Below, piece after piece: positions 118 through 44,825 of a DNA stretch of 64,000 nucleotides. The notes beneath the pieces were generated by a model, which was not told where the DNA came from, did not search any database, and saw only the letters and a list, made by a program, of their open reading frames with translations. How positions within the stretch are numbered: position 1 is the stretch's first letter; every line of letters begins with the position of its first letter. Location: contig NZ_WIQU01000065.1 of the NCBI RefSeq assembly GCF_015732285.1, positions 9,058 to 73,057 of the forward strand. Reading direction: 5' to 3'. The translations under genes and the position numbers were made by a program. The DNA comes from Pectinatus frisingensis (GTDB lineage Bacteria > Bacillota > Negativicutes > Selenomonadales > Selenomonadaceae).

Positions 118-894
118 TTAACTCATTAGACTTCCACCAGTAAGATTTATTGCTTGTCCCGTGATATATGATGATTTTTCTCCCGCCAGATAAAATGCCA
201 AATCAGCGACTTCTTGATATTCACAAACCCGTCCCATAGGAATAGTCCCACAAAAATAAGGCATAACCTCTTCTGGTTTCAACTTCCGTTTTTGGGCATA
301 ATCACCTATTTGTCTATCCCACATAGGTGTCTTAACAACACCTGGGCAAATAGCATTTACTCTAATGTTTTGCTTGGCAAACTCCACCGCCACTGATTGT
401 GTTAAACCAATAACACCTGCCTTACTTGCACAATATGCCTGATATCTTGCACCACCTTTTTTGCCCGATTGCGACGAAAAATTAATAATACTACCTCCCC
501 CATTTTTAAGCATTTTGGACACAGCACATTGACATCCTAAATACATTCCCTTTAAATTTACCGCCAGTGTCTTATCCCATATCTCTTCGGTACACTCCAA
601 AAAAGGAATAATAATTGAAATTCCCGCGCAATTTATCCAAACATCGATTTTACCAAATTTATTAATAATTGTATTTCCTGCACCAAATACATCATTTTTA
701 GATGTTATATCTATTTTTTGTTTTAAACATATCCTTCCCATTTTATTTATTTCATCATAACTGTTATTGAGCCCTTCTTCGTTTATGTCTAGTAATGATA
801 CATTAGCCCCTTTTTGTGAAAATGCTTTTGCTATAAAAGCTCCTATACCACTACCAGCACCTGTTATTACCACTGATTTATTTTTTATTGGCAT
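118..894 (-). CDS. SDR family sugar (alcohol) dehydrogenase
   Basis: This 258-residue protein is a classical short-chain dehydrogenase that should oxidise or reduce a sugar, polyol or sugar phosphate with NAD(P) in the cytoplasm. The nucleotide-binding motif TGAGSGIG is at residues 11-18, NCAG at 88-91, the catalytic serine near 140 and YCASK at 154-158. The length is usual for the family. It is the last gene of a PTS operon, behind a zinc-dependent dehydrogenase. The pairing of an SDR with an MDR beside a mannose-family PTS recalls the L-sorbose operon of Klebsiella, where SorD (glucitol-6-phosphate dehydrogenase) is an SDR. A glucitol-6-phosphate-like substrate is therefore possible, but the sequence does not fix it. 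Confidence 0.85.
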   Translation of the reverse strand: MPIKNKSVVITGAGSGIGAFIAKAFSQKGANVSLLDINEEGLNNSYDEINKMGRICLKQKIDITSKNDVFGAGNTIINKFGKIDVWINCAGISIIIPFLECTEEIWDKTLAVNLKGMYLGCQCAVSKMLKNGGGSIINFSSQSGKKGGARYQAYCASKAGVIGLTQSVAVEFAKQNIRVNAICPGVVKTPMWDRQIGDYAQKRKLKPEEVMPYFCGTIPMGRVCEYQEVADLAFYLAGEKSSYITGQAINLTGGSLMS

Positions 895-935
895 ATATAT
901 TCCATCATCCTTTAGGAAATAAATTTTATTTCAAT

Positions 936-1979
936 TCACGAAAAATTTACTACTACTCTGAATTTATCCGCTTTAGCTGCTGATTCAAATGCTTTCTCTA
1001 TCTTTTCTATCGGATATATTTCACTTATGAATGGTTTTAAATCAATTACATGTTCTGATACCATTTGCGCTGCCCGCATAAAATCGCGATCATTGGAATT
1101 AGCTGTTCCCAATATTTGTATTGATTTTCCATGCACCCAATTAGGATCGAACAAAACCGGTTCTGCTGGATGAATAGAACTGTACAAGACAATCTTTCCC
1201 GCATTGCTGACACATCCAAAAGTATCCTGCACCACTGTAGGAATAGGTGTTGTGTCAAAAACCACCTGTGCTTTTATTCCTCCCGTGATATCTTTTACCG
1301 CTTCACTCAAATCGATTTTTGCCGGATTAACTGTACATATTGCACCCAATTTCTTAGCCAATTCTAATCTTGCTTCATTCACATCTGAAACTATTACCGC
1401 GGCTCCTCGTTTTTGACACAATATCGTGTGAATCAATCCCATAATTCCGCAACCAATGATCAATACAAAATCACCCATTTGCACATTTGCTGTTTCTACA
1501 CTATGAATTACGCATGACAGCGGTTCTATGATACAAGCCTCATTTGGAGTTACATTTTTATATTTAAATATACAATCAGGTGATACCAATAAATACTCAC
1601 TTAATCCGCCCATTCCTTTATATGGTAATCCTTCCAAATGAGCACTATGGTCAAAATGCTCACAACTTTGCGAATTCCCCGTTTTACAATAATAACAATT
1701 ACGACACTGCAATGTAGCACCTACAACTACTTTATCACCAACACCCCACTCAATTTTATTGACATTTTCACCAAGTGCCGCAATTTCACCAGCGATTTCA
1801 TGCCCCCCAATAAAAGGAAATTCAACCTTATTTACCCCTGTATAAACTCTTTGCTCCCATGTACATATTGCACAGGAATTGACCTTAACTAAAACTTTAT
1901 TACCACTTACATGCGGAGTTTCGCATTCTTGTAACTCCACTTTTCTAATTCCCGTAAATACCGCTGTTTTCATTACCAT
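936..1979 (-). CDS. Zinc-dependent medium-chain dehydrogenase (polyol/sugar-phosphate type)
   Basis: This 347-residue MDR-family oxidoreductase probably acts on a polyol or sugar phosphate with NAD(P). Catalytic zinc ligands can be placed at Cys39 and His60-Glu61 (GGHE). Four structural-zinc cysteines are at about 92, 95, 98 and 106. A Rossmann motif GCGIMG is near 176-181. The usual C-G-S-D around the catalytic cysteine is C-T-W-E here, so it is not a plain threonine or galactitol-phosphate dehydrogenase. AAAGGAG precedes two possible ATGs, at 1979 and 1973; the second has the better spacing. GatD (galactitol-1-phosphate dehydrogenase) has this length and SorE the same operon role; I cannot choose between them. 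Confidence 0.85.
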   Translation of the reverse strand: MVMKTAVFTGIRKVELQECETPHVSGNKVLVKVNSCAICTWEQRVYTGVNKVEFPFIGGHEIAGEIAALGENVNKIEWGVGDKVVVGATLQCRNCYYCKTGNSQSCEHFDHSAHLEGLPYKGMGGLSEYLLVSPDCIFKYKNVTPNEACIIEPLSCVIHSVETANVQMGDFVLIIGCGIMGLIHTILCQKRGAAVIVSDVNEARLELAKKLGAICTVNPAKIDLSEAVKDITGGIKAQVVFDTTPIPTVVQDTFGCVSNAGKIVLYSSIHPAEPVLFDPNWVHGKSIQILGTANSNDRDFMRAAQMVSEHVIDLKPFISEIYPIEKIEKAFESAAKADKFRVVVNFS

Positions 1980-1988
1980 CTTACTCCT

Positions 1989-2813
1989 TTAACCAACAAT
2001 TCCCGTTACACCCAATATAATTCCTATTATAACTAATATTCCCATAACTGTAGTTGATTTTAACTGTTTATCCTTTAACAGATATAATGTCAGCAAAGTA
2101 ATTCCCAAAGGAATCATGCCTTTAAATAATTTATCCAATATATCTGTTTGCAAAGACAATTGAGCTTGCCCCAAAGGTATATTCATCGTTGACTGTGCTT
2201 TTACATAACTAGCGGTCAATGATCCCAACACAGTCGCCCCCATTATAGAAGCTGCTGCTATAAGTTGTTTCATTTTCCCTCCGCTTAAAATTGCCTGTAC
2301 ACCTTCTTTACCAGTTTTATAACCACGCATGTACATAATATAGGCAATCGTAAGCATTATTATAGCTTCTGTCACTCCAAATACTGCTGCACCAAGCATA
2401 TTTCCTGCTGAAGCAATACCTATACCAACTGCAAGTAATATTGGTTGTAATGTTCCCTGCCACAAAGTATCACCAATTCCAGCAAATGGTCCCATCAGTC
2501 CTGTCTTCACACTATTGATAGCGTCATCTGGAATATCAGCTCCGTTAGCTCTAGCTTCTTCCATAGATAAAACCATGCCGTTTATTATACCGCCAAAATG
2601 TGGTTCTGTATTATAAAATTGCATATGACGTTGCATAAAAGCTTTCTGGGCTTTTTCATCACCAGGATACAATTTCTTAGGCAAATGTGACATAGAAAAC
2701 AAAACACCACTTGCCTGCAAACGTTCATAGTTATAATTGGCATGAGAAAAAAACGTCCATTTCCAAAAAGCACTGAGAACATCCTTTTTACTAAGACTGA
2801 CTTTATTTTCCAT
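1989..2813 (-). CDS. PTS mannose/fructose/sorbose family component IID
   Basis: This 274-residue membrane protein is the IID subunit, which with IIC forms the sugar channel of a mannose-family PTS permease. It begins MENKVSLSKKDVLSAFWKW and carries the IID hallmarks: a cytoplasmic N-terminal part with an RLQASG-type motif, a GLMGPFAGIGDTLWQGT-like core and hydrophobic segments to the C-terminus. I chose the ATG at 2813 because AAGGGAG lies about 11 bases upstream and because an upstream in-frame ATG would make the gene overlap IIC. It is the fourth PTS gene of the operon. The sugar cannot be read from this subunit. Confidence 0.92.
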   Translation of the reverse strand: MENKVSLSKKDVLSAFWKWTFFSHANYNYERLQASGVLFSMSHLPKKLYPGDEKAQKAFMQRHMQFYNTEPHFGGIINGMVLSMEEARANGADIPDDAINSVKTGLMGPFAGIGDTLWQGTLQPILLAVGIGIASAGNMLGAAVFGVTEAIIMLTIAYIMYMRGYKTGKEGVQAILSGGKMKQLIAAASIMGATVLGSLTASYVKAQSTMNIPLGQAQLSLQTDILDKLFKGMIPLGITLLTLYLLKDKQLKSTTVMGILVIIGIILGVTGIVG

Positions 2814-2835
2814 ATTAATATTTTCTCCCTTATTA

Positions 2836-3615
2836 TTAAAAGTCATCATCAGCTGCAGATACTGTGGCAGCATTTGCTGTTAATCCTGTGTATAAATAAG
2901 CAACTATCCCAGCAATAATGGCAACAGGCATAGTTGTAAGTCCTAAATATACTGTAACCACAAATCCTAAAATAAACCATAAAAGAATACCTGGTTTACT
3001 TATAGCCCGTAAATTCATCGCAATACCAATAGCAGGAAGAATTCCACCTATTACTTCAAGTACTTTGAGAGGTGTTCCATCTAGTGTTGCAATAATATTC
3101 GACACTACACCAGCACCATAATAACAACCAAGTGCAACAGGAATTACCCCTATTATAAAAGCTATTATCTGTGGAGGTACGACGTGCAAAAAACAAGCTT
3201 TTTTCATATCTCCATTCAGTGCGCATTTATCAATCATATGAACAAAAAATACATCTACAGTCATATGCACCACCCAAATTATCGTGCCCAATAAACCTAA
3301 TGGAACAGCTATAGTTATTGCAACAGCAGGACTTACTCCTGCTGCCAATGCCAATGCAGTTCCTAAAGTTCCGGCCAACCCAGGATCAGTTGGTGGAGCA
3401 CCACCTGCTGAAATATAAGCAATAAATGGTAAATTTATTGCTGCACCAATTATTGCTCCTGCCAATGGATCACCTAAAATTATTCCAACAATAAGCCCTG
3501 AAACAAGTGGTTTTTGTATAATAGTGCTTCCCATGCACGTCAACCAAGGTGTCCCATTAATACCCAAATAATAAACTATACCAATCAAAAATGCCTGTAA
3601 TACAGAAATTTCCAT
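2836..3615 (-). CDS. PTS mannose/fructose/sorbose family component IIC
   Basis: This 259-residue integral membrane protein is the IIC subunit that carries the sugar across the membrane in partnership with IID. It is almost wholly hydrophobic, and glycine-rich stretches such as GDPLAGAIIGAAINLPF and GGAPPTDPGLAG are typical of IIC. The start at 3615 (MEISVLQAFLIGIVYYLG) follows AAAGGAG and gives the usual family length; an upstream in-frame ATG would overlap the IIB gene. The stop is 22 bases from the IID start, consistent with co-transcription. Confidence 0.92.
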   Translation of the reverse strand: MEISVLQAFLIGIVYYLGINGTPWLTCMGSTIIQKPLVSGLIVGIILGDPLAGAIIGAAINLPFIAYISAGGAPPTDPGLAGTLGTALALAAGVSPAVAITIAVPLGLLGTIIWVVHMTVDVFFVHMIDKCALNGDMKKACFLHVVPPQIIAFIIGVIPVALGCYYGAGVVSNIIATLDGTPLKVLEVIGGILPAIGIAMNLRAISKPGILLWFILGFVVTVYLGLTTMPVAIIAGIVAYLYTGLTANAATVSAADDDF

Positions 3616-3649
3616 ATTAACTTCTCTCCTTTTAATAAAAATTTGAAAT

Positions 3650-4126
3650 TTACAAATATTTTGCGACATTAATTTTTTTATCTTCAGCAATAATCTGTAT
3701 TTCTAATTTGCAGCCACTATCCAGTATTTTTTTAAATATCTCACGCTCCTCATCTGATGCTGATATATTTTTATAAAATTGATGCCTATTTATATTAGCT
3801 CCCATACCACCTATATTTATACAATCAAATTTAATTCCTTTTTCAATCAACTTCGATACTGTCTTTGGAAATTTAACCAGAATAATAACGTTATCCCCAT
3901 CCTTGAATCCTTTTATTAATCGTTCAGCCGCCCTATCAACTGAAAAAACACCCAATCCAATATTCCCTGGCACTGCATTTTTTAAAATATTTTTCATAAA
4001 TGGATCTGCTGCCACTTCATCATCAATTACCATTATTTTGGTTGCTTGGGTAAAATTGAGCCACGATGTCATAACTTGTCCATGAATAAGTCGATCATCT
4101 ATTCTGATCAATACCACATTTTTCAC
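3650..4126 (-). CDS. PTS mannose/fructose/sorbose family component IIB
   Basis: This 158-residue soluble protein passes phosphate from IIA to the incoming sugar. The phosphorylated histidine is His15, within DDRLIHGQV, which is diagnostic for mannose-family IIB. The length matches stand-alone IIB proteins, so IIA and IIB are not fused here, unlike E. coli ManX. It lies 12 bases downstream of the IIA gene and 34 bases upstream of the IIC start, inside a single minus-strand operon. Confidence 0.93.
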   Translation of the reverse strand: MKNVVLIRIDDRLIHGQVMTSWLNFTQATKIMVIDDEVAADPFMKNILKNAVPGNIGLGVFSVDRAAERLIKGFKDGDNVIILVKFPKTVSKLIEKGIKFDCINIGGMGANINRHQFYKNISASDEEREIFKKILDSGCKLEIQIIAEDKKINVAKYL

Positions 4127-4138
4127 TATAAACTCCCC

Positions 4139-4567
4139 CTAAAAATCATTTTTAATATCTTCCTGCATATCAGAAAATACATTATTTAATGAAATCAATG
4201 CATCTTTCCCAACTAAAAGACAATCTTTAAAAAGTTCCTCCAGCCTTATATCTGATTTTCTCGATAATACAGCATGACATACCATAGGCATATTAACACC
4301 GGCAATAGCTTTAAAATTATTATCTTTCAACAGTTTCAAAATTACATTAGATGGTGAACCTCCTAAGATATCCACAAACACTAAAACACCCTTATCACAA
4401 TTAAGATTATTTATCGTTTCCAAAATCTTATCAGTAAATTTCTCCATGCTGTCTCCGTAATAAAGCCCTACCGTTTGAAATTGTTCTTGCTTGCCGGCAA
4501 TCAATTCAACAGCACTTTTTAATCCGTCGGCAAAACCACCATGCGTTACCAATAAAATACCAATCAA
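4139..4567 (-). CDS. PTS mannose-family component IIA
   Basis: This 142-residue protein accepts phosphate from HPr and passes it to IIB. The active-site histidine is His9 in VTHGGFADG. Mannose-type IIA features continue through VFVDILGGSPSNV, the subunit-contact region. The start codon is TTG at 4567, chosen because GGGAGG lies 8 bases upstream and no ATG fits. It is the first of the four PTS genes, just behind the PfkB kinase gene. Confidence 0.92.
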   Translation of the reverse strand: MIGILLVTHGGFADGLKSAVELIAGKQEQFQTVGLYYGDSMEKFTDKILETINNLNCDKGVLVFVDILGGSPSNVILKLLKDNNFKAIAGVNMPMVCHAVLSRKSDIRLEELFKDCLLVGKDALISLNNVFSDMQEDIKNDF

Positions 4568-4592
4568 TTATATGACCTCCCTTTCAAATTAT

Positions 4593-5507
4593 TTACAATT
4601 TTATCACATTTATATTATTTATATATTTTTCCACATTAGAAAAATCTCCTAAAGCATTACTTTCAGCAACATTAGCACCTGTCGCCGCAGATTTCTTCAA
4701 TGCCAGTTCGACTTCACCCCCCTGCAAAAATTCACTCAAGAATGCTGCCAAAGCCGAATCACCCGCACAGGCAGAACTGAGTAATTTTATTTTTTGTGCT
4801 GTTGAATAATATATTTGGCTTCCATCTGTAAAATAGGCTCCTTTGTCTCCCATCGTAAGCAAAATATTCTGCGCCCCTTGGGCAATAAGATTCTGCAATG
4901 CGACAATGATTTTTTTATTCGTGTCAAGTTCATAACCAAAGATTTCCTTGACTTCATCATCATTCGGTTTTATTAGAAAAGGTCTGTATTTCAGCAAATC
5001 TTTCATCTTAGGAGAGCTTATATCTAATATCAGTCTTATTTCTTTTTCTCGACATATTTGAGCTATTTGTTCATAATATACATCTTTTATCCCAGGTGGC
5101 AGGCTGCCGCTTATCAACAGGTATTCACAATCACAAAGATTTTTTATCTCATTTAACATCTCCATCTGCTTCGTCGGTTTAATAAACGGCCCTTTATTGA
5201 CAAATTTATACTCATCAGTTCCGTCATTTAAAAAAACATTTATTCTTGTAATATCATCAATCCATACCGGATTTACTGCAATACCGATATTTTCTAATGC
5301 ATCCACAATATATCTGCCGCTGAATCCACCGAAAAATCCCATGACAATTGATTTATAATTAAAATGTTTTAATACAATCGATACATTCACCCCTTTGCCA
5401 TTTGGAGTATATACTGGGTTCCATGTTCTATTTACATAATTCTTCTTAATATTTTCTCCTGTCATGTTGAAGTCAATAGCAGGGTTCATCGTCAAGGTAT
5501 AAATCAT
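4593..5507 (-). CDS. PfkB-family 1-phosphofructokinase / tagatose-6-phosphate kinase
   Basis: This 304-residue kinase should phosphorylate a ketose phosphate to a ketose bisphosphate, feeding the aldolase encoded just upstream. PfkB features include the substrate-side motif NGKGVNVS at 36-43 and the ATP-site motif ACAGDSALAAF, with catalytic base Asp250. The family holds FruK (fructose-1-phosphate) and LacC (tagatose-6-phosphate) kinases of the same length. Mannose-type PTS systems usually deliver 6-phosphates, or 1-phosphates for sorbose, so the substrate is open. GGAG precedes the ATG. The gene lies 17 bases past the aldolase stop. Confidence 0.88.
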   Translation of the reverse strand: MIYTLTMNPAIDFNMTGENIKKNYVNRTWNPVYTPNGKGVNVSIVLKHFNYKSIVMGFFGGFSGRYIVDALENIGIAVNPVWIDDITRINVFLNDGTDEYKFVNKGPFIKPTKQMEMLNEIKNLCDCEYLLISGSLPPGIKDVYYEQIAQICREKEIRLILDISSPKMKDLLKYRPFLIKPNDDEVKEIFGYELDTNKKIIVALQNLIAQGAQNILLTMGDKGAYFTDGSQIYYSTAQKIKLLSSACAGDSALAAFLSEFLQGGEVELALKKSAATGANVAESNALGDFSNVEKYINNINVIKL

Positions 5508-5524
5508 TCATCATTCTCCTTAAA

Positions 5525-6454
<930 letters not shown>

Positions 6455-6502
6455 AACGAAAAAAACGTTATATTAATTACAGCATAAGTAATTAATATAA
6501 CG
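6455..6502 (-). terminator. Terminator of the rpiR-family gene
   Basis: Bases 6466-6480 and 6488-6502 form a perfect 15-bp stem with a 7-base loop. On the minus strand a T-rich run follows (6455-6465). It separates the regulator gene (stop at 6523) from the sugar operon downstream. Confidence 0.85.
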
Positions 6503-6522
6503 CCTATAACACTTTTCTTTTT

Positions 6523-7278
6523 TTATACTTTATCATTATTTTTTTCTACTAAATAATCAATTATTATACGTGAAATCATCGACAATGGAATACGCGAGGT
6601 AACATCAAATTCTTTAATGGCAATTTTCTTATGATAATATCCCAGCAGGTAATGTGATGCATATTTTAGCAGTGGACTACTGGAGGCACAAGTTATAACC
6701 ACCAGATTTACCTTGTTCAAATAACAATTTTCTGCCACTTTTATAAGTTCCCGGGTTTCTCCCTTTAACGAAAATAATATAACCAGCTGATTATTGGAAC
6801 GTTGGCTTAATTTAACCATAATCGTAGGATCCTCTGTAGCCAAAACATTATATCCCAGCAATTGCAGCCGCAAAGCAAATTCACGCACTACCTGTTCTGT
6901 AGGTCCTCTGCCAAAAACATAAATTTGTTTATCAACAGCTCCTGTTATTTCATTTACCACATCCAATACGTCTTTTAATGATATCCTTTGTAAAACTTCA
7001 TTTGCCTCTACTAATGTTTTTTTCATTATTTCATTTATACTTATTAAATCTTTGTTGTCTTTTGGCAAATTCAGTTTATATCGCAATTCGTTGAATCCAT
7101 TTATACCACATTTTCTGATAGCCCTGGAAACAGTTGCCGGTGAAGTAAAAGTCTCAAATGCAATGTCCACAATCGACATATTGGACAATTCTTTTTCATT
7201 GTCATTTATGTATTGAATAATAGAGACTTCAGTTTTTGACAGTGTTTCCATTATATGCCTGTCAATATTTATCAACAT
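6523..7278 (-). CDS. MurR/RpiR family transcriptional regulator
   Basis: This 251-residue regulator has an N-terminal helix-turn-helix of the RpiR type (about 1-75, including DIAFETFTSPATVSRAIRKCG) and a C-terminal SIS sugar-phosphate-binding domain (about 115-235, with YVFGRGPTEQVVREFALRLQ). Such proteins switch sugar operons in response to a phosphosugar. The ATG at 7278 is preferred over 7293 because the GGGAGAG site overlaps the first ATG and sits 6 bases before the second. It is transcribed in the same direction as the sugar operon but is separated from it by a terminator. It probably controls that operon. Confidence 0.88.
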   Translation of the reverse strand: MLINIDRHIMETLSKTEVSIIQYINDNEKELSNMSIVDIAFETFTSPATVSRAIRKCGINGFNELRYKLNLPKDNKDLISINEIMKKTLVEANEVLQRISLKDVLDVVNEITGAVDKQIYVFGRGPTEQVVREFALRLQLLGYNVLATEDPTIMVKLSQRSNNQLVILFSLKGETRELIKVAENCYLNKVNLVVITCASSSPLLKYASHYLLGYYHKKIAIKEFDVTSRIPLSMISRIIIDYLVEKNNDKV

Positions 7279-7431
7279 ATAAAGCTCTCCCATATTTATT
7301 TAATTAATTTTACTATATTATAAATGGTTAACTTATTCAATGCATATTTTCCTTTGATATAAACCTCGCTGCTATTTTCTGATTTTTCTATCCTAAAATT
7401 TATCAACTGTATATCCTCATTATGTTGTTTT

Positions 7432-37211: not shown

Positions 37212-37438
37212 ATTATGTAATTTAGTATAATAGAATACATTAATAAAATCAACGTTTTACCATCTCCTAATCTTTATCGGATTTCAAAGAAAATCATATC
37301 AGTCCACAACTTGATAATAAATCTGTATTATATAAGCCAGCTAAAAATAAATCTTTTATTGCCGCAGTCTGAGGAAATTTAATAACTGGAATTATCAGAA
37401 TAATGTTTATATAATACATTCAGATGGAGGATAAAAAA

Positions 37439-39385
37439 ATGGTTATTCAAAATAAAAGAATTTTACAGATATTAAATTTGCTTAATAAGAATGACAAAAT
37501 CATTACTGGTAAATATCTGGCAGATTCAATAGGAGTGAGTACCAGAACTATAAGAAATGATATAAAAGAAGTCGAATATTTTTTAAAAAATAATGGTGCC
37601 CATATCATTGCCGAACCTGGTAGTGGTTACAAATTGTCGATTGATGATAACGATAAATATGACATTTTCACCAACACTCATGCCATTAACACATCAAGAG
37701 AGTATAGGGGAACAAATATTGTTCCGGCAGATTATAATGATCGTATTTCTTTTATTATAGCTCGAATCTTATTAAACTCTTTACACAATAAAATTGTAAA
37801 ACAAGAAGATTTAGCAGAAGAGTTATTTATAAGTCTATCCACATTAAAAAAATATCTAGGTGATATAAAAAAAAGTATAGCTCGTTTTAATCTCAATTTA
37901 ACTACCGACAGAAAAAATGGCATAAAAATAATGGGCGATGAAACAAAAATAAGATATTGCATATCCGAGTATGTTTTCAACCGGGATGATCTGTTAAATC
38001 TATCCAACAATCAATTTTTCAATGACATATTCCCACATCAAGAAATAGAAACAATAAAGCACATATTATTGAAAATTATTTTAAAATATAATATTCATCT
38101 AACAGACATCGCCTTTAAAAACTTATTAGTCCATATTGTTATTACTTTGCGCCGTTCTGGCAAGGGAAATACTGTAGAATACACTAAAAATGAACGCAGC
38201 AAACTTCAAGCATCTCAATACTATAAACCTGCATCTGAAATACTCAATACAGTTGAAAAACAATTGGGAATAGATATCCGTAATGAAATTTTTTATCTTA
38301 CACAACATTTCATTGCCAGTCAAAAATTTATAGTATCAGCAAAAAAAAGATCTGATTTTAAAAAATTATTAACAGATATTTTAAATAAAATCTATAAGCA
38401 TACTGGTATAGATTTATCCGATGACAGCGAATTAGTATCCGGAATAACCATCCATCTGATAGCGGCAATAAGCAGACTTCGTTTTAATATGAATATTCGA
38501 AATGATATCTTAAAATCTATTAAAACCAATTATCCGCTTGCTTTCGATATGGCAGTCATAGCAAGTGAAATAATAGCTCAAGAAGAAAAAGTACAAACCA
38601 ACGAAAATGAAATAGGTTTTCTTGCCATTCATTTTGGAGCTGCCTTAGAAAGAAATAAACTAAATGATGAAATGGGAAAAACTGCTGTTATCGTCTGTGG
38701 TGCAGGACTTTCCACTGCACTTTTACTTAAAAGCAAATTACAAAGAAGATTTGGCAATATTTTACAAATAAAAAAAGTAATGAGTTGTTATGAACTTGAT
38801 GAAAAAATAATAAAAGAAACAGATTTTATATTCACTACCGTACCTATAACCCATATAATTTCAAAAAAAATCATCCGCGTAGAACCTATAATGACAGAAT
38901 ATGATCTTACTAGAGTTGAACAAAAAATAAACGAAATTTGCACTGGTGATGAAATACCACTGAATAATTTTTTTAAAAAAGATTTATTTATCCCATTATT
39001 AAAAGCAAATTCATCTAAAGAAGTGATAGAAAAAATTACTAACAAAATGCTAAAACTTGGTTTTATTGATAAAAATGTCAAAAAATCTATCTTTGATAGG
39101 GAAAAACTTGCTTCTACCGAATTTTCCAATTTTATAGCTATCCCCCATCCTTTAACAAATCAAATGAAAAATCCGGCAATAGCAGTTGCAGTATTAAAAA
39201 ACCCAATAATATGGAATAAAGAAAAAGTGCAAATTATATTTTTACTTAGTATTCCCCAAAATCTTTATAGTGTGTGGGAAAGTATATTTAAAAAAATCTA
39301 TAATAATTTCATTGAAGGCAGCAGTGGTGAAATTTTATTAAAGACACGATCATTCACCACATTAATCAATGAATTAAAATACTAA
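37439..39385 (+). CDS. PRD-containing transcriptional activator with EIIB and EIIA domains
   Basis: This 648-residue regulator of PTS operons has an HTH_11 domain (about 1-60), a second helix-turn-helix region (about 80-160) and two PRD domains (about 165-280 and 290-395). A GatB-like EIIB domain follows (Cys in VIVCGAGLSTALL, near 427), then a EIIA domain of the mannitol/fructose type (His in IAIPHPL). This is the MtlR/LicR/ManR layout: DNA-binding activity is set by phosphorylation from HPr and the cognate EIIB. The ATG at 37439 lies 8 bases after GGAGG; an upstream ATG overlaps that site. It leads the galactitol-type PTS operon and most likely activates it. Confidence 0.92.
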   Translation: MVIQNKRILQILNLLNKNDKIITGKYLADSIGVSTRTIRNDIKEVEYFLKNNGAHIIAEPGSGYKLSIDDNDKYDIFTNTHAINTSREYRGTNIVPADYNDRISFIIARILLNSLHNKIVKQEDLAEELFISLSTLKKYLGDIKKSIARFNLNLTTDRKNGIKIMGDETKIRYCISEYVFNRDDLLNLSNNQFFNDIFPHQEIETIKHILLKIILKYNIHLTDIAFKNLLVHIVITLRRSGKGNTVEYTKNERSKLQASQYYKPASEILNTVEKQLGIDIRNEIFYLTQHFIASQKFIVSAKKRSDFKKLLTDILNKIYKHTGIDLSDDSELVSGITIHLIAAISRLRFNMNIRNDILKSIKTNYPLAFDMAVIASEIIAQEEKVQTNENEIGFLAIHFGAALERNKLNDEMGKTAVIVCGAGLSTALLLKSKLQRRFGNILQIKKVMSCYELDEKIIKETDFIFTTVPITHIISKKIIRVEPIMTEYDLTRVEQKINEICTGDEIPLNNFFKKDLFIPLLKANSSKEVIEKITNKMLKLGFIDKNVKKSIFDREKLASTEFSNFIAIPHPLTNQMKNPAIAVAVLKNPIIWNKEKVQIIFLLSIPQNLYSVWESIFKKIYNNFIEGSSGEILLKTRSFTTLINELKY

Positions 39386-39402
39386 AATCAGGATGTGTTT
39401 TA

Positions 39403-39894
39403 ATGGAAAATACTATAACGTCAATTTTTGACATGAATATAAAACCTGAATATTTATTTATACATTTAGATGCCGTTGACAACATGGATGCTATAAAGCA
39501 AATGGCTGTGAATTTAGCTAAGCAAGGTGTTGTAAAAAATAGTTTTATCCCGGCAGTTTTAGAAAGAGAGCGCATTTTTTCTACCGGGTTACAATTTGAT
39601 GAAACTGGTATAGCTATCCCTCACACCGATACTCAACATATCAACTCATCAGCCATTAGTATTGCCATTTTAAAAAAACCTGTCACTTTTCAGGCGATGG
39701 GCATGCCCGATAGCAAGGTAAATGTCGAAATAATTTTTATGCTTGCAATAAAAACTGCCCATGGGCATATCAAATTTTTGCAAACATTGATGAATCAATT
39801 ACAAAACAAAGTAATTTTGCATAATTTAATAAATAGCACTTCTAAAAAATTATTAATAAATAATTTTAAATCATTATTTAATAAGGAGAACTAA
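39403..39894 (+). CDS. PTS EIIA component, fructose/mannitol (GatA) type
   Basis: This 163-residue soluble protein accepts phosphate from HPr on His74 in GIAIPHTDTQH and passes it to the EIIB encoded next. The fold and length match stand-alone GatA/SgcA proteins. It follows the activator gene by 17 bases and the EIIB gene starts four bases after it. AGGATG precedes the ATG. Confidence 0.92.
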   Translation: MENTITSIFDMNIKPEYLFIHLDAVDNMDAIKQMAVNLAKQGVVKNSFIPAVLERERIFSTGLQFDETGIAIPHTDTQHINSSAISIAILKKPVTFQAMGMPDSKVNVEIIFMLAIKTAHGHIKFLQTLMNQLQNKVILHNLINSTSKKLLINNFKSLFNKEN

Positions 39895-39898
39895 TATC

Positions 39899-40180
39899 AT
39901 GAAAAAAATTCTTGTAGCATGTGGAGCAGGTGTCTGTACTTCAACCGCAGTTTTAAATAAATTAAAGAGTATATTGGATGATCGTGGTTTTAAGGGAAAA
40001 TATGAATTATCCCAATGTAAAGTAGCAGAAGTTCCGGCCAAATCATCTGGCTATGACCTATGTATAGCCACTACAACCGTTTCAGAAGTTAAATGTCCAT
40101 TTATAATGGGAATTCCATTTTTAACGGGGCGAGGATTAGATGATGTCATAAAAAAAATATTAAAAGAATTGGAAAAATAA
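39899..40180 (+). CDS. PTS EIIB component, galactitol type
   Basis: This 93-residue protein carries phosphate on Cys8 in VACGAGVCTST, the P-loop-like pattern of GatB-type EIIB. The small size and a following GatC-type EIIC place it in the galactitol family. AAGGAG lies in front of the ATG. It would phosphorylate the incoming sugar and also signal to the upstream PRD activator. Confidence 0.92.
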   Translation: MKKILVACGAGVCTSTAVLNKLKSILDDRGFKGKYELSQCKVAEVPAKSSGYDLCIATTTVSEVKCPFIMGIPFLTGRGLDDVIKKILKELEK

Positions 40181-40202
40181 TTAATTTTGTGAGGTGAACT
40201 TT

Positions 40203-41579
40203 ATGGATACAGTATTATCTGCTTTTAAATTCATACAAGGACTGGGACCTTCTGTAATGATGCCCATAATTATATTCATTTTAGGAGTAATACTTAAAGC
40301 CGGTATTGGGAAATCAATAAGAGCCGGTTTAACTGTCGGTATTGGATTTATTGGACTTAATTTAGTTATCGGCCTGATGAGTTCCAGTCTCGGACCAGCT
40401 GTTCAGCAAATGGTAGAACGATACGGATTAAGCCTTTCAGTTATAGATGTCGGCTGGCCGGCAGCCGCTGCAATAGCCTTTGCTTCAACACTAGGCACAA
40501 TAATTATACCCTTATGTTTATTGATAAATATAATCATGCTTTTTACCAACACTACACAAACTGTTGATGTAGATATATGGGACTATTGGCATTTTGCATT
40601 TACCGGAGCCTTGGTTGCTATTATTACAGACAGCCAAATATTTGGTATTATTGCGGCTATATTAAATATGATAATAATAATGGTTATTGCCGATTATACG
40701 GCACCAGCATTGGAAAAAACAAACGGTCTAACCGGAATATCGCTTCCCCATGGATTTACCGGTGCTTATGTTCCTATTGCCTGGGTAATAAATAAAGTAT
40801 TTGATTGTATTCCCGGTGTAAGAAATATAAATATTGATTTAAATAAAATACAGAACCGCTTTGGCGTTTTCGGCGAACCAATTCTGGTAGGAACCGTACT
40901 TGGAATAATGATTGGTATTGTAGCCGGTTATCAAATCGGTGGTGTTCTAACTTTAGGCATAACCCTGGGAGGCGTACTTGTATTAATTCCTAAGATGGCC
41001 GCTATGCTTATGGAAGGACTACTGCCAATATCAGATGCCGCATCTGAATTTATTGAAAAAAGGTTCAAAAATAGAGGGAAAATATATATTGGTCTTGATT
41101 CTGCAATAGGGATAGGCCATCCTGTCACATTAGCCGTTTCCTTAATCCTAGTGCCATTAACTGTATTCATGGCCGTTATATTGCCAGGAAACAAAGTTCT
41201 TCCTTTTGCTGATTTAGCTGTAATTCCATTCATGTTTGTTTTGATTATTCCTATGGTAAACGGAAATGGATTTAGGGCTTTAATAACCGGTATAATCACG
41301 ATTGCTACAGGACTTTTAATAGCTACCAACCTTTCTCCGTTGATAACAACTGCAGCAGTTAATGCCAAATTTAAAATGCCTGAAGGTGCAATGGCCATTT
41401 CTAGTATATGTGACGGAGCTAACCCTCTCACATGGCTTATTGTACATCTAAATGATTTAGGTGTAATTGGAGTAAGCTTATTGACTGTAATAGCCATTAT
41501 CTTATTAATATTAAATAGGACACGCATAATAAAAGAAGCTAAAGAAATACATTCTCTAAAAGATGACACTGGTATATAA
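40203..41579 (+). CDS. PTS EIIC component, galactitol (GatC/SgcC) type
   Basis: This 458-residue membrane transporter belongs to the galactitol/SgaT branch, with about 10-12 hydrophobic segments and GatC blocks such as GIGFIGLNLVIGLM, GWPAAAAIAFAST and DSAIGIGHPVTLAVSLILVP. It imports and phosphorylates its sugar with the EIIA and EIIB encoded upstream. I start it at the ATG 40203, six bases past GAGGTG, and not at the in-frame GTG inside that site. Galactitol itself is doubtful, because no dehydrogenase gene is in the operon. Confidence 0.93.
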   Translation: MDTVLSAFKFIQGLGPSVMMPIIIFILGVILKAGIGKSIRAGLTVGIGFIGLNLVIGLMSSSLGPAVQQMVERYGLSLSVIDVGWPAAAAIAFASTLGTIIIPLCLLINIIMLFTNTTQTVDVDIWDYWHFAFTGALVAIITDSQIFGIIAAILNMIIIMVIADYTAPALEKTNGLTGISLPHGFTGAYVPIAWVINKVFDCIPGVRNINIDLNKIQNRFGVFGEPILVGTVLGIMIGIVAGYQIGGVLTLGITLGGVLVLIPKMAAMLMEGLLPISDAASEFIEKRFKNRGKIYIGLDSAIGIGHPVTLAVSLILVPLTVFMAVILPGNKVLPFADLAVIPFMFVLIIPMVNGNGFRALITGIITIATGLLIATNLSPLITTAAVNAKFKMPEGAMAISSICDGANPLTWLIVHLNDLGVIGVSLLTVIAIILLILNRTRIIKEAKEIHSLKDDTGI

Positions 41580-41583
41580 AACT

Positions 41584-42054
41584 ATGAAAACATATATTTG
41601 TTCTTCACAGGAACGTATCTTTCAAATCATAATTCCATCAGTAATATCTGCCTGCGGTCTATTTACTTGTATTGCAGTATTTTTCACTCACATTGAATAC
41701 AGTCTCCCGGCCATATTAATAGGTATAATTTGTCTATACACTATTTATAACACCTTTTTAACTGGAAGTTATCCTGATAAAGTTATTGTAACTAATAATT
41801 ACATTGCATTTTCATGCATGGGAAAAATCCAATATTATAAATATAATGAAATAAAATACTTTAAAGTAAGAGACTCACAATACTCAAAAAATATGTTTCT
41901 TAGAATAAATCGACCCTTATTCGGCAAAGGTCGATTTTGGATAAACACCCGCAGTTTCCACAATGGAAATGACTTATATGAATATATAATAAATTTAGAA
42001 TATAAAATACACCCAAATTCATTAAAAAACATTGCTCGCAATAAAATTATATAA
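41584..42054 (+). CDS. Small membrane protein in the PTS operon (bPH-like tail)
   Basis: I do not recognise this 156-residue protein with certainty. It has two adjacent membrane segments (about 15-37 and 42-60) and a basic C-terminal domain of about 90 residues rich in beta-strand pattern (KVIVTNNYIAFSCMGKIQYYKY), like bacterial PH-type domains found after paired membrane helices. No good ribosome site precedes it. The start at 41584 is four bases past the EIIC stop, and one at 41563 would overlap it; translational coupling is likely either way. A role beside the transporter is only suggested by position. Confidence 0.65.
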   Translation: MKTYICSSQERIFQIIIPSVISACGLFTCIAVFFTHIEYSLPAILIGIICLYTIYNTFLTGSYPDKVIVTNNYIAFSCMGKIQYYKYNEIKYFKVRDSQYSKNMFLRINRPLFGKGRFWINTRSFHNGNDLYEYIINLEYKIHPNSLKNIARNKII

Positions 42055-42068
42055 AAGAGGTAAAAACA

Positions 42069-42716
42069 TTGTTTGAAAATGAAAAACAAAAAATTATCAA
42101 TACTGGTTTAAAAATTGACAAATATGGTCTAATTGCACTTTCCGGCGGTAATGTAAGTCAACGTATGCCCTCTGGAGAAATTCTAGTCACACCTTCAGGT
42201 ATGATCTACGAAGAACTAAATAGAAACGATATTATTATTATGGATATAAATGGTCATATTTTAGAAGGCACACGACGCCCATCTGTGGACACTACCGCAT
42301 TATTATACATCTACAGTCATATGCCGGAAGTTAATGCTGTTATCCACACACATCAACCATATGCAACGGCTGTCAGTTTGATAGCTGATGAGCTTCCATG
42401 TGTTCTTACCACTTTAGCCAATGCTACCAGAGGAAGCGTAAAAGTTTGTCCATTCAGCTCAGCTGCCAGTGAGCAAATGGGTATTGAAACAGTTGAAAAT
42501 ATAGATAATAGATTAGCTGTAATTTTAAAAAATCATGGTGTTATAACAATAGGCAACAGCTTAAAACAAGCCCTTTATTCATGTGTATATTTAGAGGAAG
42601 CTGCCAAAACATATATGATAGCCAAATCAGCTAGTGACAGTATATCTCAACTTACCAGAAAACAAATATATGAAGCTATCGAAGTTTTTAATCATTATGG
42701 ACAAGATAAAAGATAA
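42069..42716 (+). CDS. Class II aldolase/epimerase of the AraD/FucA fold
   Basis: This 215-residue zinc enzyme has the metal histidines His93 and His95 (HTHQPYA) and His156 (KNHGV) of the L-fuculose-phosphate aldolase / L-ribulose-phosphate 4-epimerase family. The N-terminal LSGGNVSQR and TPSG motifs bind the substrate phosphate. The catalytic acid position has Asp74 (RRPSVDT), as in the epimerase AraD, where FucA has Glu. It may therefore epimerise or cleave a ketose phosphate. The TTG start follows AAGAGGT. It is followed by a second, unrelated aldolase gene. Confidence 0.85.
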   Translation: MFENEKQKIINTGLKIDKYGLIALSGGNVSQRMPSGEILVTPSGMIYEELNRNDIIIMDINGHILEGTRRPSVDTTALLYIYSHMPEVNAVIHTHQPYATAVSLIADELPCVLTTLANATRGSVKVCPFSSAASEQMGIETVENIDNRLAVILKNHGVITIGNSLKQALYSCVYLEEAAKTYMIAKSASDSISQLTRKQIYEAIEVFNHYGQDKR

Positions 42717-42731
42717 AAGGTGGAATAAAAA

Positions 42732-43577
42732 ATGCTAGTCTCAACAAAAAAAATGTTATCAAATGCAAAGAATAAAGGGTTTGCCATCCCTTCAGCAAAT
42801 TTTATTGATCAAATATCAGTTATATCACACATAAAAACGGCCGAGAAAATGAATTTACCATTAATTTTATCATATGCACAAGCGCATTCAGTATATCAAA
42901 GCATTGAAGAAGCTGCTATGCTGGGACATTTTTATATAAAAAATTCTAATGTTCCAATTGCATTACATTTGGATCATGGCATGGATTTTCAATTTATAAA
43001 AAAAGCTATCCAACTTGGTTTTACATCCGTTATGATAGATGCTTCACAAAAAAATCTCTCTGACAACATAGCGATAACCAAAGAAATAGTTGATTTTGCC
43101 CATAAGAGAAATGTCGCAGTAGAAGCGGAAATTGGTCATGTGGGAACCGGCGTGAATATTGGTCAAGGCGAAACAGATGTTGATGATAATAGTATTTACA
43201 CAACAGTAACAGAAGCAAAACAATTGGTTGAAGGAAGCGGAATTGACAGCTTGGCTGTATCGATAGGAACAGCGCATGGCCTTTATAAAGGAATACCTAA
43301 AATCAATTTCGATCGTTTAAAAGAACTATCCCAAAATATATCTATTCCATTAGTTTTGCATGGTGGTTCATCTTCAGGTGACAACAATCTTGAAAAGTGT
43401 GCCCTTAATGGTATAACCAAAATAAATATATATACCGATTTTATAGCAAATGCATACACCTATTTGAAAAAAACTGACACTAATAACTATTTCGATGTAA
43501 AAAGCTCTCTATCGCAGAGTATGAGCGATACTTTAGCTCATTATTACAAGATTTTTCACACACAGTCTTTATCATGA
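42732..43577 (+). CDS. Class II ketose-bisphosphate aldolase family (GatY/KbaY-like), second copy
   Basis: This 281-residue protein resembles tagatose-bisphosphate aldolases: N-terminal STKKMLSNAKNKG, HLDHG with Asp81-His82, [17 protein letters not shown] and LHGGSSSG supply the zinc and phosphate sites. It is a paralogue of the protein at 5525-6376 but diverges in the substrate loops (SANFIDQ for AFNIHNM). No kinase to make a bisphosphate is present in this operon, so the substrate may be a monophosphate or the kinase may lie elsewhere. AAAGGTGG precedes the ATG. Confidence 0.87.
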   Translation: MLVSTKKMLSNAKNKGFAIPSANFIDQISVISHIKTAEKMNLPLILSYAQAHSVYQSIEEAAMLGHFYIKNSNVPIALHLDHGMDFQFIKKAIQLGFTSVMIDASQKNLSDNIAITKEIVDFAHKRNVAVEAEIGHVGTGVNIGQGETDVDDNSIYTTVTEAKQLVEGSGIDSLAVSIGTAHGLYKGIPKINFDRLKELSQNISIPLVLHGGSSSGDNNLEKCALNGITKINIYTDFIANAYTYLKKTDTNNYFDVKSSLSQSMSDTLAHYYKIFHTQSLS

Positions 43578-43607
43578 TATCAGTAATTTTGTTTGGAGGA
43601 TTTACGA

Positions 43608-44291
43608 ATGAAAAAAATTAGACACCCTTTCCTAGTGGTCAATCCCAAATCATATCTTTACGGTTTAAGATCATTAAAATTTGCCGAATCAATAGACAAT
43701 ATTGCTGCTAAAAGCAATATACAAATCTTTTTTACGTGTTCTTTCACCGACATCCGTTATATAAAAGAACATACTCACCATCTTATCATAACCGCACAAC
43801 ACATGGATGATCTGAAACCTGGTCGTGGAATGGGACATGTACTTCCTGAATCACTGCAAGACGCCGGTGCAGAGGCCGTATTCCTCAATCATGCCGAAAA
43901 TTCCCTGACAATTTCACATCTTTCAAATTCAATTATTCGCGCAAGAGAACTTGGCATAATATCAATAGCATGTGCAGACTCACTGATTGAAGCCACCTCT
44001 ATAGCTAAATTAAATCCAGATATACTGTTATGTGAACCTACTGATTTAATTGGGACTGGGCACATAGCTGATAATAACTATGTATTGAAAACCACTTCGC
44101 AAATCAAATCTATCAATTCTAATATTTCCGTCATGATTGCTTCTGGTATAACTACTGCACAAGATGTCTACAACGTAATCAAACTAGGAGCCGATGGTAC
44201 AGGTGGAACAAGTGGTATTTTAAAAGCTCCTAATCCTGTACTCAGAGTACAGGAAATGGTTGATGCCATTTTAAAAACAGAAAATGAATAG
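43608..44291 (+). CDS. Triose-phosphate isomerase homologue (short, archaeal-like form)
   Basis: This 227-residue TIM-barrel protein has the isomerase residues Asn12 and Lys14 (VNPKSY), His95 (LNHAEN) and Glu143 (CEPTDLIGTG), and a phosphate loop GGTSGI. The compact length and the EPTDLIGTG form resemble archaeal enzymes and the TIM-like isomerases of tetrose and other sugar pathways, not the 250-residue glycolytic enzyme. In this operon it more likely isomerises a sugar phosphate other than dihydroxyacetone phosphate. The ATG at 43608 lies 8 bases past GGAGG. Confidence 0.83.
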   Translation: MKKIRHPFLVVNPKSYLYGLRSLKFAESIDNIAAKSNIQIFFTCSFTDIRYIKEHTHHLIITAQHMDDLKPGRGMGHVLPESLQDAGAEAVFLNHAENSLTISHLSNSIIRARELGIISIACADSLIEATSIAKLNPDILLCEPTDLIGTGHIADNNYVLKTTSQIKSINSNISVMIASGITTAQDVYNVIKLGADGTGGTSGILKAPNPVLRVQEMVDAILKTENE

Positions 44292-44300
44292 GAGATTAAA

Positions 44301-44825
44301 ATGACTGTTTACAAGGAAACCATTGCTTTACAATCACATGGCGAACGACCTACATTTATAAATATTACATCGTCCGTAAAAGAAAGCATTAAAAAAAGCC
44401 AAATCCAAAATGGAATTTGTACCATAATATCACCACATACAACATGTGCTGTTTTTTTTGAAGAGTTTGTGCACGATTATGATAAAAATGGTGATGAATT
44501 TTTACAGATAGATTTAAATAACACCTTAAAAAAGATAATTCCTGATAATACATCTCAAGGCCAATATAACTATCCCGGTAAAAAGCACTATCAAGCAGTA
44601 GAAGCATGGCCCGATGCAGACTCTTATTTACCCGGAGGGGACCGTAATGCGTTATTAAATTGTGATGCCCATTTAAAAGCTACATTAATTGGTTCAAGTC
44701 AAATATTTGATGTAGATAGTGGTACATTAGGTGTAGGCGTTACAGGATATATTTATTTTGTCGATTTTGACAGGACCAGGCCTCGCACACGAAAGTGTAA
44801 AATTATCATAATTGGAGATTGTTAA
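44301..44825 (+). CDS. YjbQ family protein (UPF0047)
   Basis: This 174-residue protein belongs to the YjbQ/UPF0047 family. The conserved core is visible as ISPHTTCAVFFEE near 43-55 and LLNCDAHLKATLIGSSQ near 117-133. E. coli YjbQ shows secondary thiamine-phosphate-synthase activity, but the physiological role of the family is unclear. It ends a sugar PTS operon here, with nine bases between it and the isomerase gene. A chemical repair or isomerase-like role on a sugar phosphate is conceivable but unproven. Confidence 0.85.
   Translation: MTVYKETIALQSHGERPTFINITSSVKESIKKSQIQNGICTIISPHTTCAVFFEEFVHDYDKNGDEFLQIDLNNTLKKIIPDNTSQGQYNYPGKKHYQAVEAWPDADSYLPGGDRNALLNCDAHLKATLIGSSQIFDVDSGTLGVGVTGYIYFVDFDRTRPRTRKCKIIIIGDC

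What the first reader, a model, noticed from the sequence alone, without database searches (positions are those of the whole stretch)
37439..44825. Unassigned sugar pathway: galactitol-type PTS with two aldolase folds, a TIM-like isomerase and YjbQ
The operon encodes a PRD activator, EIIA-EIIB-EIIC, a small membrane protein, an AraD/FucA-fold enzyme, a GatY/KbaY-like aldolase, a TIM homologue with intact Asn12/Lys14/His95/Glu143, and a YjbQ protein. No dehydrogenase or kinase is present, so it is not galactitol catabolism as in E. coli. The parts could isomerise a PTS-made sugar phosphate (TIM homologue), epimerise it (AraD-type) and cleave it (aldolase). The order of steps and the sugar are inference.
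Basis: partly seen in the sequence, partly recalled or inferred. Interest (0 to 1): 0.68.

Follow-up and report, generated by a model that had tools for sequence, protein, structure and literature searches.

The report
Rare-sugar operon with paired isomerase and YjbQ
Bacteria as different as gut anaerobes, enterococci and a soil Shinella carry the same small gene set, an odd triose-phosphate-isomerase relative paired with an odd YjbQ protein and usually an aldolase, attached to different sugar importers; it looks like an undescribed way to break down short sugars, possibly four-carbon ones, and can be tested directly.

Summary
The operon is real: nine genes at 37424-44825, gaps of at most 17 bases. 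The TIM homologue and YjbQ form a discrete, linked pair. In 398 genomes of one phylum (Bacillota by my reading) both occur in the same 12, always adjacent. Of 43 non-redundant loci, 41 have YjbQ near TIM on the same strand and 34 have the FBA-type aldolase, with importers of different kinds. TIM+YjbQ(+aldolase) is thus a portable module.

The TIM homologue keeps Lys/His/Glu but has Gly where TIM has Leu230, which suggests a substrate longer than a triose. The aldolase lacks the DPR motif of GatY/KbaY. My reading: the isomerase moves a ketone next to the CH2-O-phosphate, giving a ketose-1-phosphate, and the aldolase cuts it to DHAP plus a short aldehyde, so no second kinase is needed. A tetrulose (D-erythrulose-4-P to L-erythrulose-1-P) needs the fewest assumptions; a pentulose is the main rival. 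YjbQ's step is unknown. Nothing here is wet-lab evidence. Novelty: new variant of a known kind.

The parts
37424..39385 (+). Activator: HTH_11, Mga, two PRD stretches, IIB-like and EIIA_2 domains (653 aa)
   Evidence: Pfam
39403..39894 (+). PTS EIIA (PTS_EIIA_2, 163 aa)
   Evidence: Pfam; below the NCBIfam galactitol EIIA cut-off (79.5 against 139)
39899..40180 (+). PTS EIIB (93 aa)
   Evidence: Pfam; below the NCBIfam galactitol EIIB cut-off (50.6 against 95)
40194..41579 (+). PTS EIIC of GAT type (461 aa)
   Evidence: PF03611 308.7 bits; TIGR00827 479.9 against cut-off 542.2
41563..42054 (+). Small membrane protein of unknown family (163 aa); relatives in GAT-type loci L072, L080, L095, L101, L139
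   Evidence: no family hit; relatives aligned
42069..42716 (+). AraD/FucA-fold enzyme, Asp at the FucA Glu73 position
   Evidence: PF00596; alignments
42732..43577 (+). Class II (FBA-type) aldolase without the C-terminal DPR motif
   Evidence: PF01116
43593..44291 (+). TIM homologue of archaeal type, Leu230 to Gly; likely start at the ATG at 43608
44301..44825 (+). Long-form YjbQ (174 aa)
   Evidence: TIGR00149 73.2 bits, cut-off 67.75

Best explanation
The operon imports and phosphorylates a short ketose through a GAT-type PTS. The AraD-type enzyme may correct a hydroxyl. The TIM homologue moves the ketone next to the CH2-O-phosphate (R-CO-CHOH-CH2OP to R-CHOH-CO-CH2OP), which gives a ketose-1-phosphate. 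The FBA-type aldolase splits that into DHAP and a small aldehyde, without a second kinase. My leading substrate is a tetrulose: D-erythrulose-4-P to L-erythrulose-1-P to DHAP plus formaldehyde, because only in a four-carbon chain does the normal C2 ketone already stand where TIM chemistry can use it. Elsewhere the same module is fed by other importers, kinases or dehydrogenases. Shown: gene content, co-conservation, active-site states. Inferred: reaction, substrate, order. YjbQ is a tightly linked partner of unknown step, perhaps supplying the TIM substrate or handling the aldehyde.
For: Linked pair: TIM family in 12 of 398 genomes, long YjbQ in the same 12, 8 to 75 bases apart, and a gap from E 4e-71 to 1e-14 before the next YjbQ. 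Aldolase in 34 of 43 non-redundant loci. Catalytic Lys/His/Glu and Gly204 invariant in 23 of 23 TIM homologues; ordinary and archaeal TIM have Leu there, and Leu230 is part of the clamp on the catalytic Glu (passages of PMC12874384). Aldolase: no DPR motif near the C-terminus in 19 of 19, whereas GatY and KbaY have it and 4 of 6 paralogues read from this genome. Feeding genes that suit a short ketose: Dak1-type kinase proteins, FGGY kinase with an epimerase, DRL oxidoreductase with the sorbitol-type PTS. LerI with DHAP aldolases interconverts DHAP plus formaldehyde, erythrulose-1-P and erythrulose-4-P (passages of PMC10733421). Propionispira arboris, which holds two modules (L100, L127), is listed as using erythritol (table in PMC10491768).
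Against: No substrate is shown. Many partners (RPE, KdsD-like, AraD, FGGY of pentulose type, transketolase) are ordinary pentose-phosphate enzymes. No RpiB-like match, which the known erythritol route uses, near any of 95 loci, and no dedicated formaldehyde gene identified; the FrmA-like matches are the medium-chain dehydrogenases also matched by GatD. HxlA is not over cut-off in the three genomes with the HxlB variant. In PMC10733421 FucA and RhaD, but not FbaA, supported growth by joining formaldehyde to DHAP (passage). Cleavage to formaldehyde is chemically uphill and toxic (my knowledge). P. arboris uses many sugars, so its erythritol use is weak support. That the DPR Arg binds the second phosphate is recalled; the papers were not held. 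YjbQ is missing in 4 of 95 loci (L102, L103, L104, L132); two of these end at a contig edge.
Confidence: 0.42

Rival explanations
1. Five-carbon version: a pentulose-5-P is the input. A 2-keto to 3-keto shift (by YjbQ, or HxlB where present) and then the TIM homologue (3-keto to 4-keto) turn it end for end into a pentulose-1-P, cut to DHAP plus glycolaldehyde; run backwards, it converts an L-pentulose-1-P into a D-pentulose-5-P.
For: Pentose-type partners: RPE (over the TIGR01163 cut-off in L100 and L124), HxlB over cut-off (L124), KdsD-like (L126), FGGY nearest to the pentulose-kinase and ribulokinase models but below their cut-offs, AraD-type in 4 of 43 loci and transketolase parts in 3 of 43.
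Against: Needs a further ketone shift of unproven origin in loci without HxlB. No AldA-like match for glycolaldehyde near 95 loci; FucO-like iron dehydrogenase matches in only 4 of 95 (L038, L043, L044, L088).
Confidence: 0.25
2. Another chain: a hexulose, a deoxy- or a branched sugar phosphate goes through the same isomerase and aldolase logic.
For: The pocket opened by Leu230 to Gly does not set the chain length. YdjI, another class II aldolase without DPR, is annotated as acting on an octuluronate-1-phosphate.
Against: Needs more ketone shifts; Dak1-type kinases usually take short ketoses (recalled).
Confidence: 0.15
3. Ordinary chemistry: the TIM homologue is a spare triose-phosphate isomerase and the aldolase a ketose-bisphosphate aldolase.
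For: PRK04302 is named triose-phosphate isomerase and its cut-off is passed; TIGR00167 (ketose-bisphosphate aldolase) is passed.
Against: Leu230 to Gly, no DPR motif, no second kinase in the operon, a separate ordinary TIM in the genome, and a strict link to a special YjbQ.
Confidence: 0.1
4. The module runs in the building direction and fixes formaldehyde onto DHAP (a natural EuMP route).
For: The enzymes would be reversible; the authors of PMC10733421 ask whether such a cycle exists in nature (passage).
Against: The module sits with sugar importers and sugar-sensing regulators (SorC, PRD), which points to catabolism.
Confidence: 0.04

Closest known systems
Erythritol/threitol catabolism with LerI/EryH (TIM-fold L-erythrulose-1-P isomerase), EryC epimerase and DerI (RpiB)
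   Same: A second TIM-fold isomerase beside kinases, dehydrogenases and epimerases in a sugar operon; the proposed isomerase reaction is the same
   Different: Different TIM branch (archaeal type, Gly at position 230; the EryH-like branch has Phe); no RpiB-like match nearby; an aldolase and YjbQ instead; PTS uptake in most loci where an importer was seen
E. coli galactitol operon (gatYZABCDR)
   Same: GAT-type EIIA/B/C and a class II aldolase
   Different: No GatD, no GatZ; aldolase 35% identical to GatY and without DPR; PTS parts below the galactitol cut-offs
YdjI aldolase (E. coli ydj cluster)
   Same: Class II aldolase without the DPR motif; its alignment covers residues 7-275 of the window protein
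   Different: 31% identical; its cluster has a sugar kinase, and no TIM or YjbQ is annotated in the stretch shown
Archaeal triose-phosphate isomerase
   Same: Fold and catalytic Lys/His/Glu; Foldseek TM 0.90 to 1hg3
   Different: Leu of loop 8 replaced by Gly in every member aligned
YjbQ/UPF0047 family
   Same: Family profile passed; fold matches (Z 19.1, rmsd 1.6 A over 139 residues to 1vmj)
   Different: Longer by an internal insertion, a separate sequence class, linked to the TIM homologue

Membership tests
Triose-phosphate isomerase | Catalytic Lys, His, Glu | tested here: met
   K19, H100, E148 invariant in 23 of 23
Triose-phosphate isomerase | Hydrophobic clamp Leu230 of loop 8 | tested here: not met
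   Gly204 in its place in 23 of 23
Triose-phosphate isomerase | DHAP/GAP interconversion | not testable with these tools
   needs an assay
L-erythrulose-1-P isomerase (LerI/EryH) | Membership of the EryH-like sequence branch (canonical-length TIM) | tested here: not met
   The window protein is of the short archaeal type and aligns differently from L144, L146, L147, L148; the label EryH-like is mine
L-erythrulose-1-P isomerase (LerI/EryH) | Activity on erythrulose phosphates | not testable with these tools
   needs an assay
Tagatose-bisphosphate aldolase (GatY/KbaY) | Score over the family cut-offs | tested here: not met
   TIGR01858 215 against 443.55; GatY model 220.7 against 383
Tagatose-bisphosphate aldolase (GatY/KbaY) | C-terminal DPR motif | tested here: not met
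   0 of 19; present in GatY and KbaY
Class II DHAP aldolase superfamily | Metal ligands and catalytic Asp | tested here: met
   D81, H82, H182, H210 invariant in 19 of 19; roles recalled
Ketotetrose-phosphate aldolase (EC 4.1.2.2) | Cleavage of erythrulose-1-P | not testable with these tools
   needs an assay; no sequence of a known member was found to compare
AraD / FucA | Over an AraD or FucA model cut-off | tested here: not met
   araD 97.3 against 389.1, fucA 110.9 against 400.25, PRK06557 188.3 against 251
AraD / FucA | Asp (AraD) or Glu (FucA) at position 73 | tested here: met
   Asp, the AraD state as recalled
YjbQ / UPF0047 | Family profile and fold | tested here: met
   TIGR00149 73.2 bits over 67.75; fold
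E. coli galactitol system | Galactitol-1-P dehydrogenase and GatZ in the unit | tested here: not met
   None in 37424-44825; gatD and gatZ are annotated in E. coli

The most novel reading that the evidence does not exclude
The aldolase of this module is a natural ketotetrose-phosphate aldolase. With the TIM homologue it forms a natural erythrulose-phosphate route (D-erythrulose-4-P, L-erythrulose-1-P, DHAP plus formaldehyde), used by fermenting bacteria to eat erythrulose, erythritol or threitol, with the long YjbQ as a new pathway enzyme, perhaps dealing with the aldehyde. It would give genes to a cleavage proposed for erythritol in Propionibacterium and show that the chemistry of the synthetic EuMP cycle exists in nature.
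Probability: 0.27. Interest if true: 0.82.

Novelty: new variant of a known kind. Interest (0 to 1): 0.6.

Why it matters
YjbQ/UPF0047 is widespread (10 of 14 named control genomes) and, to my knowledge, has no settled function. A subfamily linked to one isomerase in a small operon gives a concrete pathway in which to find what YjbQ does. The module is also a gene-level candidate for the cleavage of erythrulose-1-phosphate: a 2015 study of 21 Propionibacterium freudenreichii strains could not find an erythritol pathway although all strains ferment it (passages of PMC4437456), and the EuMP paper calls co-occurrence of such an aldolase with the isomerases worth further study (passage of PMC10733421). 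If the substrate is longer than four carbons, walking a ketone along a sugar phosphate would be the new part.

Tried and rejected
Considered and set aside: (1) galactitol or tagatose pathway: no dehydrogenase or kinase in the operon, no DPR motif. (2) RuMP-type formaldehyde fixation in the HxlB loci: HxlA is not over cut-off in G560, G710 or G696; it is over cut-off in 2 of 16 genomes asked. (3) MEM as a relative of GutM: hhalign probability 0.5%. (4) A structural hint for YjbQ outside its own family: after the YjbQ entries the best row has Z 4.3, which leaves the question open. (5) Literature: 'triosephosphate isomerase' with 'galactitol' and 'YjbQ' gave 0 papers; YjbQ gave 24 and UPF0047 5, 27 distinct titles as I count them. 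I read passages of two of them; none of the listed titles names such an operon. Only open-licence papers are held, so this is not proof that nothing is in print. The papers of 1968 (Propionibacterium), 2014 (Brucella) and 2015 (Mycolicibacterium) on erythritol were not seen; they are cited in passages or from memory.

Against my reading: pentose-type neighbours are at least as common as tetrose-type ones; no formaldehyde gene was identified near the loci; FbaA did not do the formaldehyde reaction in vivo in PMC10733421 (passage); L132 and L102 lack YjbQ without a contig edge beside the gene.

Limits of counts: I used 95 loci and collapsed them to 43 at 85% TIM identity; two archaeal loci (L107, L108) and the short loci L001-L032 and L109-L122 were left out beforehand. 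'None seen' for 16 importers partly reflects contig ends and a reference set without TRAP. ORFs were called by my own simple script. 'EryH-like' for L144-L148 is my label (216-236 bits, model cut-off 509); the L145 row was mistranslated and is dropped, leaving 4. In one search one wrong ORF was picked and the comparison was repeated. Rows L072, L124 and L126 of A2 lie in genomes among the 12 and match by construction; of A1 only L072. Phylum names for searches are read from the species behind the centre loci (Vibrio sinensis, [Clostridium] citroniae).
Full report
OBSERVATION. The nine genes at 37424-44825 are present, intact and closely spaced on the + strand. Profiles confirm the assignments: activator, EIIA, EIIB, EIIC-GAT, a membrane protein without family, AraD/FucA fold, class II FBA fold, TIM and YjbQ. 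The TIM homologue scores 173.5 bits with PRK04302 (cut-off 132), and its nearest solved relatives by sequence are archaeal TIMs, 1hg3 first (Pyrococcus woesei by its title). The genome carries an ordinary TIM elsewhere, so this one need not serve glycolysis.

CONSERVATION. A scan of one genome per species with the TIM homologue returned 72 loci, 70 of them bacterial by title. Plasmid records added Enterococcus, Lacticaseibacillus and Shinella. Whole-genome searches found PRK04302 over cut-off in 8 of 150 genomes of the window's class, the window's own included. With the family alignment A1, 12 of 398 genomes of the phylum of [Clostridium] citroniae had a match, and 1 of 398 of the phylum of Vibrio sinensis, that one being the Vibrio genome itself. 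A profile of the long YjbQ on the same 398 genomes of the first phylum found it, at E 4e-71 or better, in the same 12, next to the TIM homologue on the same contig with 8 to 75 bases between the matches. The next hits, to shorter YjbQ proteins, start at E 1e-14; counting those, 259 of 398 genomes match at E 1e-5. Long YjbQ and this TIM branch therefore go together.

NEIGHBOURHOODS. Labelling 95 loci with reference proteins and collapsing them to 43 by TIM identity gave: YjbQ within 9 kb on the same strand in 41, aldolase in 34, PTS-Gut in 12, PTS-Gat in 11, PTS of the sorbose/mannose family in 1, PTS-Fru in 1, ABC in 2, none seen in 16. The two without YjbQ are L104 (contig edge) and L132; among all 95 also L102 and L103. 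Examples: GutM, EII-GUT, EIIBC-GUT and IIA-gut with a DRL oxidoreductase (L045); sorbose-type PTS with ribulose-phosphate 3-epimerase (L100); FGGY kinase with RPE (L048, L128); Dak1, Dak2, BtpA, FGGY and a sugar ABC importer (L096); a diverged Dak1 protein before the aldolase (L041, L046) with TRAP genes DctQ and DctM upstream in L046 and an aldo/keto reductase upstream in L041; fructose-type PTS with HxlB and RPE (L124); FGGY, medium-chain dehydrogenase and a KdsD-like isomerase (L126); SDR, AP_endonuc_2 fold and FGGY in Shinella. The window's own variant, GAT-type PTS plus MEM plus AraD, recurs in L072, L080, L095 and L139.

ACTIVE SITES. In 23 aligned TIM homologues the catalytic Lys, His and Glu are invariant, and so is Gly204. 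It aligns without a gap to a Leu of archaeal TIM and to Leu230 of the genome's ordinary TIM; a second TIM branch that I take for EryH-like has Phe in 4 of 4 readable rows. Leu230 is part of the hydrophobic clamp on the catalytic Glu, and water fills its place in the L230A variant (passages of PMC12874384). The loops that bind phosphate keep the archaeal pattern. I infer a substrate in which the phosphate and the two reacting carbons sit as in DHAP, with extra carbons beyond. Not every reader-listed residue is fixed: the Asn is Gly in Shinella, L124 and L126.

The aldolase keeps its metal ligands and catalytic Asp in 19 of 19 rows, but none of the 19 has the DPR motif near the C-terminus, against 4 of 6 paralogues read from this genome. 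GatY and KbaY have it, YdjI does not. From memory its Arg holds the second phosphate of bisphosphate substrates. The AraD-type protein has Asp where FucA has Glu73; L133, where an AraD/FucA-type protein stands in place of the FBA-type aldolase, has Glu.

MECHANISM. Both enzymes point to the same compound class: a 2-ketose-1-phosphate made by the isomerase and cut by the aldolase, with no second kinase. A four-carbon ketose needs the fewest steps, because D-erythrulose-4-P already has its ketone next to the carbon that bears CH2-O-phosphate. DHAP aldolases, with LerI, interconvert DHAP plus formaldehyde, erythrulose-1-P and erythrulose-4-P (passages of PMC10733421); in that work FucA and RhaD served in vivo and FbaA did not. 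The DRL protein of a PTS-Gut locus matches the solved oxidoreductase 3upy/3upl over residues 10-431 of 433 (327 bits). From memory that entry is the DXR-like enzyme whose product is a branched erythritol-4-phosphate; relatives of unknown function, DLO1 and DLO2, are described (passages of PMC3847144). A polyol-phosphate dehydrogenase role would fit.

Against this, RPE, KdsD, AraD, FGGY kinases of pentulose type and transketolase are normal partners of pentose-5-phosphates, so a five-carbon version stays open, with YjbQ or HxlB doing one more ketone shift. Near the 95 loci there was no RpiB-like and no AldA-like match; FucO-like matches occurred in four (L038, L043, L044, L088) and FrmA/GatD-like ones in three (L095, L126, L132).

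LITERATURE. A 2023 paper states that an erythrulose-phosphate aldolase was suggested to act in the cleavage direction in Propionibacterium pentosaceum and Sinorhizobium meliloti, and asks for study of its co-occurrence with the isomerases (passage of PMC10733421). A 2015 paper could not reconstruct the erythritol pathway of P. freudenreichii (passages of PMC4437456). A 2025 paper says that transporters with kinases, or PTSs, specific for tetroses have not been reported (passage of PMC12780249). The 1968 Propionibacterium paper itself was not seen.

STRUCTURE. The predicted models are confident: YjbQ pLDDT 95.5, TIM homologue 94.0. The YjbQ model matches YjbQ-family entries well above everything else listed and gives no hint of function. 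The TIM model matches archaeal TIM best.

VERDICT. Its substrate is not proven.

Noticed in passing
window 118-7293 (- strand): A second sugar operon in the window: a GatY-type tagatose-bisphosphate aldolase over cut-off and with the DPR motif, a 1-phosphofructokinase-type kinase over cut-off, a medium-chain and an SDR dehydrogenase, four ORFs that look like a mannose/sorbose-family PTS and one like an RpiR regulator (the last five by eye). It has the kinase and dehydrogenases that the finding's operon lacks.
   Followed up: partly
L085 9227-10678; also L086 and L089: Two different TIM homologues (37 and 59% identical to the window's) stand in tandem in a GAT-type PTS operon, and L086 and L089 also hold two YjbQ matches.
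   Followed up: no
L132: TIM homologue and aldolase with a sorbitol-type PTS, a medium-chain dehydrogenase and DeoC, but no YjbQ match nearby.
   Followed up: no
L034 (E. faecium pQL50), L035 (L. paracasei pLPCN-1): The whole PTS-aldolase-TIM-YjbQ set lies on plasmids typed as conjugative, with transposase genes near it.
   Followed up: no
L045 14190-15488 and other PTS-Gut loci: A DRL-family oxidoreductase (PF21135) in a sorbitol-type PTS operon: a possible polyol-phosphate dehydrogenase role for DXR-II-like oxidoreductases of unknown function (PMC3847144 passages).
   Followed up: partly
L041 7706-8710, L046 8018-9010: A diverged Dak1-only protein stands just before the aldolase; I saw no Dak2-like match in the labelled loci.
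   Followed up: no
window 41563-42054: Small membrane protein of unknown family, also found in five other GAT-type loci; not detectably related to GutM.
   Followed up: partly
G000, whole genome: Eleven class II aldolase-like matches in one 2.9 Mb genome, one of them with an in-frame TGA.
   Followed up: no
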